Source: Halomicrobium urmianum (GTDB taxonomy: Archaea; Halobacteriota; Halobacteria; Halobacteriales; Haloarculaceae). Taken from it: a stretch of 64,000 bases of DNA. The stretch is taken from NCBI RefSeq assembly GCF_020217425.1, contig NZ_CP084090.1, forward strand, positions 2,170,001 through 2,234,000. Direction: 5' to 3'. The notes beneath the pieces were generated by a model, which was not told where the DNA came from, made no database searches, and saw only the letters and a list, made by a program, of their open reading frames with translations. Positions 45,824-49,887 of the stretch are shown here, in pieces (the stretch's first letter is position 1; each line of letters starts with the position of its first letter). The position numbers and the translations under genes were made by a program.

Positions 45824-46687
45824 CTACTCCAGCAGGTCCGGCAGGTCGTTGACGCTCTCGACGACGGCCGCCGCTCCCTCGCGGCTGTACTTCCGTCGTC
45901 CCTCGTCGCCGGTGAGGCCGCCGGTCAGCACGCCGACGCCGTAGTAGACCCGCTCGTCGGCCGCGTCGGCGTTGACCGCCGTCCGAACGTCGTCGAGCGT
46001 GTCGCCGACGAAGGCCACCCGATCGGCGCCGAACCGCTCGGCCAGCGTCACTAACGCGGCCGGGTCGGGCTTGCCCTCGTCCCAGTCGTCCATCGTGAAG
46101 CGGTGCTCGTCGGACACGTCCAGCCCCGCCCGCACCAGCGCGATGTCGGCCTCCGCGGCCGGCCGGCCCGTCAGGACGCCCACGTCGTAGCGCTCCCGGA
46201 GTTCGGCGACCGTCCCCTCGTCGACGATGACCGGCTCGTCGTGGATGAACCCCGCCGTCTCGAGATCGGGTTCGCCCCCCTCCAGGTCGCGGTAGAGGTC
46301 GCTCCCGAGGTACAGCCGCTGGAAGACGTCGCGGAGCCGTTCGGGGTCCCACTCCTCGAAGACGTCCTCGGCGTCCGTCTCGGGGAGCGCGTCCCGGACC
46401 ACGGCCTCCGCCGCGTCCAGGCCGCCGCCGCGCTCGGCGATGCGGTCGGTGAACTCATCGACGCCGAGGTCGAACCCCGACTGCGAGCCCAGCACGTACA
46501 GGGCCGCCGCGTACGTCAGCTCCCAGTCGTTGTTGAACCCGCCAGCGTCCTTGAACGGCTGAATCTCGGCCCGGTCGATCGTCTCGCCGTACACCCGCTC
46601 GACGGACTCGACGATCGCGCGCCGGTAGGAGTCGGCCACGTCCACCAGCACGCCGTCGACGTCGAGCACGACAGCGTCCACGTTCAT
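45824..46687 (-). CDS. HAD-superfamily hydrolase (TIGR01548-like)
   Basis: The 287-residue protein has motif [21 protein letters not shown], motif [12 protein letters not shown], and motif [25 protein letters not shown] and [15 protein letters not shown]. The cap domain is helical. This subgroup of HAD phosphatases sits close to histidinol-phosphate metabolism in some genomes. The substrate here is unknown, but phosphoglycolate-type or histidinol phosphates are possible. The start MNVDAVVLD was preferred over longer Arg/Pro-rich extensions. Confidence 0.88.
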
Positions 46688-46766
46688 GTCCGCTCCCTGG
46701 CGGCCGGGCCACATTTCGCTTCCCATTCGCGGCGTCGGCGGACCGGCCGGTAGCCGCGCCGCTCCG

Positions 46767-47177
46767 CTACTCCGGCACGCCCGGCCCTTCCTCACGGGCC
46801 CAGTAGAGCGTCTCGCCGTCCGGCAGCGACGCCCGTTCGACGGGAATCGCCGGCCCGTCGCCGCCCAGCGTGGTGAACAGGAAGGCGGCGTCCGCCGCGC
46901 GGGCGGCTTCCCACGTCGGTCGATGCAGTTCCGGCGGGAGGCTCAGCGCGTAGACGGCGTCGACGCTGGCGTAGACGGACGGGTCCGGATCGGTCACGTC
47001 GTCGCGGACGAAGCGGACGCCGTCCGGCGTCGACCGCTCGACGACGTCGGTGGCGGTCACGCCGGTGCCGCGATCTGCCAGCGCCGCGGCGACGGCCGGC
47101 CGCCGGCCGATCCCGACCTCGACGAGCCGGTCGAAGGCGGACAACCGCTCGACGAGGGCGTCGCGGGCGTCGGTCAT
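46767..47177 (-). CDS. UPF0146 family protein
   Basis: This 136-residue archaeal protein has a methyltransferase-like Rossmann core: [63 protein letters not shown], then [16 protein letters not shown]0146 proteins are conserved across Euryarchaeota without a proven function. The S-adenosylmethionine loop is shortened. The ATG is only 39 bases from the ATG of the divergent archaemetzincin gene, so both promoters overlap. Confidence 0.87.
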
Positions 47178-47183
47178 GGCGGG

Positions 47184-47211
47184 ATGTTTATGGTATCCCC
47201 ACCCATATCGC
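47184..47211. promoter_or_regulatory. Overlapping divergent promoters of UPF0146 gene and archaemetzincin
   Basis: ATGTTTATGG (47184-47193) is centred 29 bases before the archaemetzincin ATG at 47217. On the other strand, a TATGGG-type element near 47206-47211 is about 30 bases before the ATG at 47177. Both transcripts would be leaderless and the polymerases would compete for the same few bases. Confidence 0.55.
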
Positions 47212-47216
47212 TTGGC

Positions 47217-47738
47217 ATGCACGTCGACGTCGTGCCGGTGGGTGACATCTCGGCCCGGGTCAAGCGGGAGGCCTCGGACGGCCTGCGCTCGGTGTACGAC
47301 TGCGAGGTCACCATGCACGATCCGGAGTCGGTGCCGACCGGCGCGTACGACGCCAACCGCGACCAGTACCGCGCGGAGGAGTTCATCGACCTGGCCCAGC
47401 GGGTGGGGGACGGCACCAAGAACATCGCGATCACGTCGCACGACCTCTACTACCGGCGGCGCAACTACGTCTTCGGGCTGGCGTACCTCTCCGGTAGCGG
47501 GAGCGTCATCTCGACCAACCGCCTCCAGACGTCCTCCGACGGCGGCTTCTCGAACCGATCGGCCGGCGACATCTTCGCCGACCGCGTCCGCAAAGAAGTC
47601 GTCCACGAGATCGGTCACACGCTCGGCCTCGAGCACTGCGACAACAAGCGCTGCGTCATGAACTTCTCGCCGACCGTCCGCGAGGTCGACGTCAAGGAGC
47701 AGTCGCTGTGCGGCTCCTGCCAGCGCCAGCTCGACTGA
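47217..47738 (+). CDS. amzA: Archaemetzincin metalloprotease
   Basis: The 173-residue protein has the metzincin site KEVVHEIGHTLGLEHCDNKRC (extended HExxHxxGxxH with a following Cys pair) and the Met-turn VMNFS. C-terminal CGSCQ completes the second zinc centre that defines archaemetzincins. It is cytoplasmic, with no signal peptide, and is a single-domain aminopeptidase-like protease of unknown substrate. Leaderless transcription from ATGTTTATGG is expected. Confidence 0.95.
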   Translation: MHVDVVPVGDISARVKREASDGLRSVYDCEVTMHDPESVPTGAYDANRDQYRAEEFIDLAQRVGDGTKNIAITSHDLYYRRRNYVFGLAYLSGSGSVISTNRLQTSSDGGFSNRSAGDIFADRVRKEVVHEIGHTLGLEHCDNKRCVMNFSPTVREVDVKEQSLCGSCQRQLD

Positions 47739-47832
47739 TACGGACCGTCGTGGCGACGTTGCACTCCGACAGTCCGTCCGACGACCCCGCAGCCCCGCGG
47801 TTCTCGCGCTCCCAAATCAGTTAGGCAATATC

Positions 47833-47867
47833 GCTATTTACTGTGTGCTGTTATGACACGTTGTCAT
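47833..47867 (+). promoter_or_regulatory. TATA box and palindrome at the start of the gene at 47866
   Basis: GCTATTTACTG (47833-47843) is 28 bases before the ATG at 47866. ATGACACGTTGTCAT (47853-47867), a 15-base perfect palindrome with a 3-base centre, ends with the start codon itself, so a protein bound there would block transcription start or translation. Confidence 0.5.
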
Positions 47868-48072
47868 GAGCGAGAGTCAATCCAACTCCAGCACCGAGGA
47901 CCTGAGCGACCTCTTCGTCTCCGTCACGGGCGACGACTCCGTCACGGAGCGCCAGGAAGAGGACCAGACCAACCGTGAGGTCGCCGAAGAGGAGGTGATC
48001 GACGTCGACGACGGCCTCGACGACGCCGTCGAGGGTGCCGAGATCGGGACCGTCGGCGACCCGTCGGCCTGA
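47866..48072 (+). CDS. Small highly acidic protein of unknown function
   Basis: The 68-residue protein starts MSESQSNSSTEDLSDLFVSV and consists largely of Asp, Glu, Ser and Thr, with TGDDSVTERQEEDQTNREVA and a final acidic stretch. It has no cysteine, membrane or signal features and is probably disordered. Function unknown. A good TATA box and the palindrome above support transcription. Confidence 0.6.
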   Translation: MSESQSNSSTEDLSDLFVSVTGDDSVTERQEEDQTNREVAEEEVIDVDDGLDDAVEGAEIGTVGDPSA

Positions 48073-48320
48073 CGGCGACGGATGTGAACCGACGGCGAAT
48101 CGACCGCACGCCGTCGTGCGGCCGCGTCGGCCCGCCCGTCACCTGACGGGACGCGTCGCGGACACCCGTCGCTTCTGCCCGCGCATCGACACCGGGACGT
48201 CGGCCACCCCTGACTGGTCACGACGTCCTGATCAGGCGACTGACCGCGAAGCCCCAGTTACGGCGGTCGTACCCGCCGATGCGACCGGGAACACTTGGGG
48301 CTGGCGCTCGATGTGTCAGT

Positions 48321-49370
48321 ATGGTATCGGATCCCTCCGACCGGTGTGGGTTCCGTCTGAACGTCGGCGTCGACGGCGCCGGCCCGGACGAGCCCTGCGA
48401 CCGACCGACGTGGGAGGACCACGACCACTGCATCTGGCACGCCGAGGTCGACGGCAAGACGCGCGATCAACTCGAGGACGCCCGGTCCGATGGTGAAGAC
48501 GGCCTGAACGGCGCGTACCTCCGGGAGGCGTCGCTCGTCGGCGTCGACTGGTTCGCCGACGCGTCGCTGATCGGTGCGGACTTTTCGGGCGCCACGCTCA
48601 TCGACACAGACTTCTCCGGTTCGGATCTCACGCTGGCGACGCTGACGGACGCGAACGGGATCAACGCGGACTTCTCCGGTGCGAACCTGGAAGGCGCGAT
48701 CTTCACGAACGCCGACCTCCGGCGCGCGAACCTGCTGGACGCCTACCTCAACGACGCGGTGCTCACCGACGTCCACATCGGCGAGGAGACCGAGTTCGGC
48801 GATCTGTCCATCTACGAGCGCGAGACCGCCGAACCCGGGTTCGGGAACAACCACCCGCTGGAGGCCGCGTCGTGGACCTACCGCGAACTCCAGCAGCTCT
48901 ACCGCGACAACGCGCTCCCGAAACTGGCCCGCCGGAGCTACAACCTCGAGAAGGACGCCCGACGCCGGCTCGCCTGGACGCAACGCGACTACGGGAACGC
49001 GATCAAGTGGGAGGTCTCGCGGTGGGTGATGCACTACGGCTCCAGCCCATACCGCGTCCTCGGCGTCTCGCTGTCCGTGATCGTGATCTGCGCGCTCCTC
49101 TTCCCGCTCACCGGCGGGATTCAGGAGACGCAGGGCGGACAGGCCATCACCTACACGATCGAAGACCCCGAGGCGACGCCGCTCTGGTGGACGGCCGAGA
49201 TCCTCTACAAGAGCCTCTACTTCAGCATGATCACGTTCGCCACGCTCGGGTACGGCGACATCCAGCCCGTCGGCCCCTACGCCCGCATGCTCGCCGCCGT
49301 CGAGACCATCATCGGCTCCCTGCTGTCGGCGATCCTCGTGTTCGTGCTCACACGAATCGTCACCTGGTGA
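48321..49370 (+). CDS. Pentapeptide-repeat protein fused to an ion-channel pore
   Basis: The 349-residue protein opens with a Cys/His cluster (RCGFRLNVGV, PCDRPTWEDHDHCIWHAE) that could bind zinc. About 18 pentapeptide repeats (residues about 62-155: YLREASLVGVDWFADASLIG, ADFSGATLIDTDFSGSDLTL) form a right-handed beta helix. A linker precedes a first membrane span near residues 243-265 (VLGVSLSVIVICALLFPLTG), a pore loop with selectivity filter TFATLGYGD (residues 305-313), and a last span ending in VTW. Such a 2TM pore should conduct K+ and assemble as a tetramer, with the cytoplasmic helix part as its regulator. Confidence 0.88.
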   Translation: MVSDPSDRCGFRLNVGVDGAGPDEPCDRPTWEDHDHCIWHAEVDGKTRDQLEDARSDGEDGLNGAYLREASLVGVDWFADASLIGADFSGATLIDTDFSGSDLTLATLTDANGINADFSGANLEGAIFTNADLRRANLLDAYLNDAVLTDVHIGEETEFGDLSIYERETAEPGFGNNHPLEAASWTYRELQQLYRDNALPKLARRSYNLEKDARRRLAWTQRDYGNAIKWEVSRWVMHYGSSPYRVLGVSLSVIVICALLFPLTGGIQETQGGQAITYTIEDPEATPLWWTAEILYKSLYFSMITFATLGYGDIQPVGPYARMLAAVETIIGSLLSAILVFVLTRIVTW

Positions 49371-49589
49371 ACGTTCCACGTTGTCGCCACTTTGCCCCAG
49401 GTTTCGAGTGGAGAACCACGACGAGCGGTGGCCGAAAGCGGCCGCCTCCCTGCGATTCACCGATCATTGCGTCTCCCGATCGCCAGTGAGGTACGCCACG
49501 GTTCGCTCCCCGTTTGCCAGTTCAGAGAACCGTCGCTTCACTCAGGAGATCCCTCTCTCACGGTTCCCTGCGGTCACCGCTCGCATATA
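49371..49589. other. Intergenic stretch without a recognisable gene
   Basis: About 220 bases lie between the channel gene and a nested hairpin. Open frames are present but give no recognisable family. It may contain decayed mobile-element sequence continuous with the IS end further right. Confidence 0.35.
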
Positions 49590-49634
49590 GGAGGTTCTCA
49601 CGCCGCTCACTGCGTTCGCGGCGGTCAAACCTCC
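49590..49634. repeat. Nested hairpin with the 11-base loop TCACTGCGTTC
   Basis: An outer stem GGAGGTT/AACCTCC (49590-49596 and 49628-49634) encloses an inner stem CGCCGC/GCGGCG around TCACTGCGTTC (49601-49623). The loop is identical to that at 44483-44493. Confidence 0.7.
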
Positions 49635-49639
49635 CTACA

Positions 49640-49887
49640 GCGTCAGAGACGTTCCTGCAGCGGCACGCAGACCAGACAGCCAGGCCGATGGCTCGGCCCC
49701 GTGCGGTTCGAGTGGAATGACCACCGATGGTCGGAGTCACCACACTCTCCCGTGAGGGTCAGTCCCAAAGAACAGCGCACAGACATCAGTACCGTCCACA
49801 GTGACGGGAATGTTGCCTCCGAGGATTCGTAGACTAACTAAGACTCCCACGGAGGAAACCCCGTCGTGAACGACGGGGAGGATGTCA
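49640..49887 (+). mobile_element. Remnant of an IS200/IS605 (TnpB-type) element: right end with guide-RNA-like hairpin
   Basis: The sequence CCTCC-rich leader plus CCCCGTCG-TGAA-CGACGGGG (49859-49878) followed by AGGATGTCA is the characteristic right end of haloarchaeal IS1341/TnpB elements, as I recall it. A short open frame ending at 49832 about 20 bases before the hairpin (last residues STVHSDGNVASEDS) may be the decayed C terminus of a TnpB-like protein. No intact tnpA or tnpB is present. The right end overlaps the stop codon of the ABCE1 gene. Confidence 0.5.

What the first reader, a model, noticed from the sequence alone, without database searches (positions are those of the whole stretch)
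48321..49370. Pentapeptide-repeat helix fused to a K+ channel pore with a Cys/His cluster
The protein joins a possible zinc cluster, a long right-handed beta helix and a two-span pore with a TLGYGD filter. The beta-helix part should be cytoplasmic and could gate the pore in response to metal, DNA-like or protein partners. I do not know of a described channel with this sensor.
Basis: partly seen in the sequence, partly recalled or inferred. Interest (0 to 1): 0.55.

Follow-up and report, generated by a model that had tools for sequence, protein, structure and literature searches.

The report
Finger–pentapeptide-repeat-gated potassium channel
A salt-loving archaeon carries a single, probably horizontally gained gene for a potassium-type membrane channel whose inside-facing sensor is a Cys/His finger plus a pentapeptide-repeat coil; the basic design is already known (its closest solved structure is the anti-phage channel HalA), but this finger-bearing branch and its exchangeable pore ends look undescribed.

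Summary
Window 48321-49370 (+) encodes 349 aa: a CCCH cluster (C9, C26, C37, H40), a pentapeptide beta-helix (about 61-157), a basic helical linker (179-240) and a two-span pore with TLGYGD and a TM2 hinge glycine; TM2 ends the protein. That no such channel is described is only partly right: relatives are annotated 'pentapeptide repeat-containing' or 'potassium channel family' protein, and the top structural match of the AlphaFold2 model is HalA, the ion channel of Hailong anti-phage defence (VIA Z 15.6, 280 residues, 14% identity, same domain order). Unlike Hailong, no nucleotidyltransferase was recognised next door, and listed sequence hits did not include HalA. Finger + repeat + pore proteins also occur in Aeromonas and Romboutsia. 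The channel is absent between the same neighbours in five of five tested congeners, and two congeners' copies fall in another clade, so horizontal gain is likely. Of 35 haloarchaeal finger proteins fetched, 8 keep the pore scaffold without a K+ filter and 3 end in a PRTase-like domain. Best reading: stand-alone, HalA-like, sensor-gated K+ channel coupled through TM1; stimulus unknown; accessory stress or defence role somewhat likelier than housekeeping. New variant of a known kind.

The parts
48321..49370 (+). Channel gene, 349 aa (an upstream ATG at 48279 would give 363 aa; ortholog starts favour 48321)
48345..48440 (+). Cys/His finger, C9-x16-C26-x10-C37-x2-H40; R28, W31, W39 usually kept
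   Evidence: no Pfam match for the window's own first 57 residues
48501..48791 (+). Pentapeptide-repeat right-handed beta-helix, residues 61-157
   Evidence: Pfam; model; PDB matches
48855..49040 (+). Helical linker, residues 179-240, net charge +5, with the EKDxRRRxAW and YGxSP stretches; candidate ligand or coupling site (inference)
49047..49109 (+). TM1 (residues 243-263)
   Evidence: model helix 243-263
49242..49259 (+). Selectivity filter TLGYGD (308-313)
49275..49364 (+). TM2 (319-348), hinge-region glycine G332 at 49314-49316; the protein ends here, so no domain follows TM2
48073..49884 (.). Stretch carrying the channel gene; in five of five tested congeners the same flanking genes lie about 0.15-0.86 kb apart without a channel between them
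   Evidence: ORFs of one congener

Best explanation
It is a stand-alone subunit of a tetrameric two-span K+ channel. Four N-terminal modules (Cys/His finger + pentapeptide beta-helix) hang in the cytoplasm and, through the basic helical linker, pull on or clamp TM1; because TM2 ends at the C-terminus, coupling can run only through the TM1 side, unlike KcsA, MthK or KirBac, whose main cytoplasmic domains follow TM2 (recalled). Binding or loss of a cytoplasmic partner (nucleic acid, nucleotide or protein; contacts perhaps on the finger, the beta-helix face and the E210/R214-R216 patch) opens or shuts the pore, and the K+ flux changes membrane potential and ion content. The gene is an accessory unit that spreads horizontally, somewhat more likely for stress or antiviral response than for housekeeping. 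Shown by computation: domains, conservation, fold match, absence at the site in congeners. Inferred: tetramer, topology, metal, gating route, role. Unknown: stimulus and direction of gating.
For: Domains. Pore gapless on KirBac3.1, weaker hits to MthK and KcsA. HalA first in Foldseek (E 1.5e-08, 336 columns) and in VIA (Z 15.6, 280 aligned, model 9-349 on chain 14-356). Same three-part plan in Aeromonas and Romboutsia: CCCH, Y187, E210, Y239-G240-P243, E328, G332, A337 shared by all 10 rows of A3, whose 8 haloarchaeal rows come from the pattern-selected set. Likely horizontal gain: no channel between the same flanking genes in 5 of 5 tested congeners; congeners' copies (L006, L007) in another clade, nearest kin in other genera. 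Plasmid copies: 21 of 95 matching records cover at least 80% of the query. Neighbour genes: apart from frames overlapping the channel, no family in more than 3 of 18 regions compared among the 25 largest clusters printed, so it acts alone or with an unlinked partner.
Against: No conduction, metal or ligand data. TM-scores to HalA are 0.36/0.38 and identity 14%; HalA was not in the listed sequence hits (60 of 338 shown, 60 of 118, all 14), so common descent is not shown. The ten neighbouring proteins scanned look like ordinary chromosomal genes (thioredoxin, F420 oxidoreductase, HAD hydrolase, peptidase M54, UPF0146, ABCE1/RLI, EMC6-like and others); PADLOC matches among them are ATPase cross-matches of ABCE1 and weak Csa3/CARF-type matches, and the channel itself has none: no visible defence island. 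The Romboutsia model was poor (pLDDT 57.8). The own clade mostly keeps a K+ filter (29 of 33 loci), which suits K+ homeostasis. Absence in congeners could also be loss.
Confidence: 0.6

Rival explanations
1. A K+ homeostasis or osmotic-response channel: the finger-repeat module reads cytoplasmic ionic strength, metal or redox state and adjusts K+ flux in a cell that keeps very high K+. No role in defence.
For: TLGYGD in 29 of 33 ortholog loci; halophile setting; one well supported set of 33 rows (pattern-selected) in the tree; ordinary gene neighbourhood.
Against: Patchy: 82 of 391 class genomes at E<=1e-20, 2 of 6 congeners; absent between the same neighbours in five congeners; plasmid copies; sister proteins with the same module lack a K+ filter.
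Confidence: 0.3
2. The repeat part is a scaffold or DNA mimic (as in Qnr/MfpA proteins) that tethers a partner to the membrane; the pore is a constitutive leak or an anchor.
For: The repeats match QnrB1 and MfpA structures; some finger-repeat relatives have no recognised pore.
Against: Filter, pore helix and hinge are kept in most orthologs; the linker between module and TM1 is as conserved as the repeats (means 0.67 and 0.66 on the pattern-selected alignment).
Confidence: 0.07
3. A recently acquired gene without function, drifting to loss.
For: Broken copies exist elsewhere (L028, L031; single in-frame stops in some other matches).
Against: The window copy is intact over its full length and keeps finger, filter and hinge.
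Confidence: 0.03

Closest known systems
HalA, ion channel of the Hailong anti-phage system (PDB 9nyi; Tan et al., Nature 2025, seen only as a citation, the paper is not held)
   Same: Cytoplasmic module first, two-span pore last; structural alignment of 280 residues, model 9-349, Z 15.6.
Prokaryotic two-span K+ channels (KirBac3.1, KcsA, MthK; Pfam Ion_trans_2)
   Same: Filter, pore helix and TM2 glycine; gapless on KirBac3.1.
   Different: Their main regulatory domains follow TM2 (recalled); here the sensor precedes TM1 and nothing follows TM2.
Pentapeptide-repeat proteins (QnrB1, MfpA, HetL, Rfr)
   Same: Right-handed beta-helix fold.
   Different: Here fused to a finger, a linker and a pore.
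Annotated 'pentapeptide repeat-containing protein' / 'potassium channel family protein' of haloarchaeal plasmids
   Same: Same protein family.
   Different: Named by domain only; no function given.
Repeat-type channels on viral contigs (L135-L138, L140, L151)
   Same: Repeat-like N-part and a TLGFGD, TLGYGD or TVGYGD pore.
   Different: No finger by my pattern; 19-25% identity in the matched segments.

Membership tests
Two-span K+ channel (Ion_trans_2) | Two TM spans with re-entrant pore helix and TxGYGD filter | tested here: met
Two-span K+ channel (Ion_trans_2) | Hinge-region glycine of TM2 in register with a solved channel | tested here: met
   G332 on a KirBac3.1 glycine, no gaps; KcsA G99 and MthK G83 numbering is recalled
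Two-span K+ channel (Ion_trans_2) | Tetramer that conducts K+ | not testable with these tools
   only single-chain prediction on hand
Pentapeptide-repeat proteins | Tandem A(D/N)LXX-type repeats forming a right-handed beta-helix | tested here: met
   PF00805 1.1e-19; model and PDB matches
Hailong HalA | Fold: cytoplasmic module followed by pore, nearly full-length structural match | tested here: met
   E 1.5e-08; Z 15.6; but TM-scores 0.36/0.38
Hailong HalA | Sequence homology to HalA above noise | tested here: inconclusive
   not among 60 shown of 338, 60 of 118, nor the 14; HalA's own sequence not at hand
Hailong HalA | Adjacent HalB nucleotidyltransferase gene | tested here: inconclusive
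   none of ten neighbouring proteins matches an NTase family in Pfam; six NTP_transf_2 matches in the genome, nearest on this contig about 98 kb off; no HalB model was at hand. I do not file the locus as a Hailong system.
Hailong HalA | Control by oligodeoxyadenylate | not testable with these tools
   needs binding and bilayer assays
Zinc finger | CCCH quartet conserved | tested here: met
   31 of 31 intact ortholog loci of 33 inspected
Zinc finger | Binds a metal | not testable with these tools
   only a weak DUF5763 match (best 0.0011) in 2 of 11 N-termini

The most novel reading that the evidence does not exclude
Haloarchaea own a horizontally spreading single-gene sensor-effector (immune guard) family: one Cys/His-finger + pentapeptide sensor of widely varying length is joined to exchangeable outputs (K+ pores, pores that lost the K+ filter at least twice, PRTase-ended proteins, other membrane ends), with bacterial finger-bearing kin, and it works like HalA without a linked HalB, reading viral nucleic acid or an unlinked nucleotide signal and collapsing the membrane potential.
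Probability: 0.28. Interest if true: 0.75.

Novelty: new variant of a known kind. Interest (0 to 1): 0.5.

Why it matters
As far as I found, K+-type channels with a beta-helix sensor before TM1 have been studied only in Hailong. This family would add finger-bearing, partner-free relatives in archaea and bacteria, and natural variants with and without the K+ filter, so one could test directly whether such channels act by K+ selectivity or by breaking the membrane potential, and what the sensor reads.

Tried and rejected
Defence annotation: PADLOC gave nothing for the channel; among ten neighbours it matched only ABCE1 (ATPase models) and two proteins with weak Csa3/CARF-type matches. Viral origin: phrog_15350 matched at 3.8e-70 over residues 155-349, but tblastn of the whole protein in phage records gave 130 records, none covering 80% of it and the 30 listed matching only the front part; the pore part gave four Pseudomonas phage records at E 1e-3; viral-contig scans with P0001 and A1 found no relative; A3 found 21 loci, 15 of them matching from residue 228 on only. 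I do not claim a viral origin. HalA by sequence: linker profile A2 gave 14 weak hits, ribosomal S21 first, no HalA; proteins L135 and L151 as possible HalA: HalA not among the 60 listed hits each. Recurrent neighbours of the 35 finger loci: at most 3 loci share a neighbour family (nine clusters in all). Romboutsia fold: too poor to search. First finger pattern was one base short and missed the window itself, repeated correctly; its reversed control also rings in many genomes, so I kept only hits that encode the finger in an open frame. Literature: the rows listed (lists capped, up to 20 rows) held no paper on a pentapeptide-repeat K+ channel of archaea, judged by title and start of abstract; passages were read in PMC11237479, PMC13275509, PMC12657230, PMC12265719, PMC10853773. 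My first statements that finger and filter are invariant, and that the nearest kin lie in other families, were dropped after rechecking.

Full report
What is there. The frame at 48321-49370 (+) encodes 349 residues. Pfam finds pentapeptide repeats (PF00805, 1.1e-19) and an ion-channel pore (PF07885, 2.2e-11), both above cut-off. The N-terminus carries C9, C26, C37 and H40. The AlphaFold2 model from 27 aligned orthologs has mean pLDDT 85.5 and pTM 0.75; the repeat region is a regular beta-helix, followed by helices, TM1, a pore helix and TM2, which ends the chain.

Conservation, told with its bias. Alignment A1 (27 rows) was gathered with patterns that required both TxGYGD and the finger, so it cannot show that these are invariant. 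Checking 33 ortholog loci (L002-L008, L016-L041): the CCCH quartet is in 31 of 31 intact ones; L028 and L031 are broken. The filter is TLGYGD in 29 of 33, TLGLGD in two (L016, a 63% identical match, and broken L028), TLSYGD in one and TLGFGD in one. L009-L012, more distant partial matches, were not counted.

Pore. Residues 298-340 align without gaps to KirBac3.1 from the pore helix through filter and TM2 glycine; KcsA and MthK are weaker hits. In such channels both ends of the two spans face the cytoplasm (established knowledge), so finger and beta-helix should be cytoplasmic; the linker is basic (+5) and the outer loop acidic (-4). Tetramer formation itself was not tested.

Closest known thing. 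Foldseek against the PDB puts HalA of the Hailong system first (E 1.5e-08, 336 columns); VIA-align gives Z 15.6, 280 residues, rmsd 5.6, 14% identity, model 9-349 against chain 14-356. The other 49 rows listed by VIA cover either the front part (to residue 247 at most) or the linker/pore part (from 189 on). The TM-scores to HalA are low (0.36/0.38), and HalA is not in the listed sequence hits (two of these lists are capped), so the plan is shared but descent is not proven. [quoted passage not shown] Hailong makes ssDNA oligomers that suppress its effector until phage exonuclease relieves this (PMC12657230). The primary paper was not held.

Neighbours. Ten neighbouring proteins between 44.6 and 54.4 kb were scanned: thioredoxin, F420-dependent oxidoreductase, HAD hydrolase, peptidase M54, UPF0146, ABCE1/RLI, an EMC6-like protein, a weak HVO_A0261-type match and two without a match; no NTase. 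PADLOC matches are ATPase models on ABCE1 and weak Csa3/CARF-type matches on two proteins. The nearest NTP_transf_2 match on the contig is about 98 kb off. Across 18 regions, leaving out frames that overlap the channel, no neighbour family occurs in more than three (25 largest clusters). So there is neither a recognised linked HalB nor a visible defence island.

Breadth. 82 of 391 class genomes match at E<=1e-20, not all over full length; 95 plasmid records match, 21 over at least 80%. Aeromonas caviae (320 aa, on a 4.9 Mb record) and Romboutsia weinsteinii (359 aa from the first start) encode a CCCH cluster, repeats and a T[LV]GYGD pore; the final C-x2-H is the same, the other spacings differ. 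In a 10-row alignment the four ligands, Y187, E210, Y239-G240-P243, E328, G332 and A337 are shared. The Aeromonas neighbours, read by eye, include no evident NTase. How common the bacterial branch is was not measured: the plasmid search with the Aeromonas protein found only itself and 13 haloarchaeal records, with the Romboutsia protein nothing.

Horizontal gain. In five of five tested congeners (G001, G002, G003, G005, G006; G004 not tested) the left neighbours (peptidase M54 gene and a small gene ending at 48072) and the ABCE1 gene lie about 0.15 to 0.86 kb apart, too close for a channel gene. G005 and G006 hold a channel elsewhere, in a different clade. The window gene sits in a well supported set of nine rows that, besides itself, mixes four rows of its own family code (other genera), two of f6, one of f8 and Halosimplex. 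Loss in the congeners is the alternative. GC of the gene is 0.668 against 0.704 for the window, but the 5 kb downstream is also low, 0.672.

A modular family. Taking the finger as bait I fetched 35 loci, mostly outside the ortholog set. Of the 35 finger proteins, 13 end in a two-span pore with GYGD (10) or GFGD (3, one of them, L125, a 96-residue remnant); 8 end in the same pore scaffold without the filter; 3 end in a PRTase-like domain (over Pfam's cut-off in L114 and L123, just under in L111; HHH over the cut-off in L114 and L123, weak in L111); 11 have other or no recognised ends, two of them cut by the fetched stretch. On a tree of linker and pore (52 rows) the filter-less state needs at least 3 changes, 2 forced by well supported branches; long branches make places uncertain. 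Such loss suggests that K+ selectivity is not the essential output in part of the family; this is an inference.

Mechanism. The likely reading is a HalA-like channel whose cytoplasmic module acts on TM1 through the basic linker, since nothing follows TM2. The stimulus is unknown. Patchy, single-gene carriage and the variable sensor and output fit an accessory stress or antiviral role somewhat better than housekeeping; the mostly kept filter in its own clade and the ordinary neighbourhood argue the other way.

Noticed in passing
L096, L097, L112, L113, L118, L119, L122, L124 (C-terminal 95 residues): Finger + pentapeptide proteins whose two-span pore keeps the scaffold but has no K+ filter; at least two independent losses on the tree.
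   Followed up: partly
L111:1264-4629 (+), L114:629-3178 (+), L123:500-4027 (-): Finger + pentapeptide + helix-hairpin-helix + phosphoribosyltransferase-like fusion proteins of roughly 850-1180 aa in haloarchaea (starts of two not fixed).
   Followed up: partly
L116 and L117 (G363:C207): Two very long finger-pentapeptide reading frames (1280 residues or more each, running off the fetched stretch) about 11 kb apart.
   Followed up: no
L135:7122-8444 (near-identical gene in L136 and L138): A viral contig carries a 440 aa TLGFGD channel with a repeat-like N-part between genes that look (by eye) like P2-type tail-completion and baseplate genes, a place known (recalled) for anti-phage cargo. Neighbours of L136 and L138 were not read.
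   Followed up: partly
L128:2237-4906: In Aeromonas caviae the finger-pentapeptide channel starts 60 bases after a receiver-plus-repeat protein (by eye), possibly one operon.
   Followed up: no
L125:608-895: 96-residue remnant joining the finger straight to pore helix and TM2 (TLGFGD), lacking repeats and TM1.
   Followed up: no
window 46686-48072: Peptidase M54 gene and a small acidic gene form the conserved left flank of the site in five congeners.
   Followed up: partly
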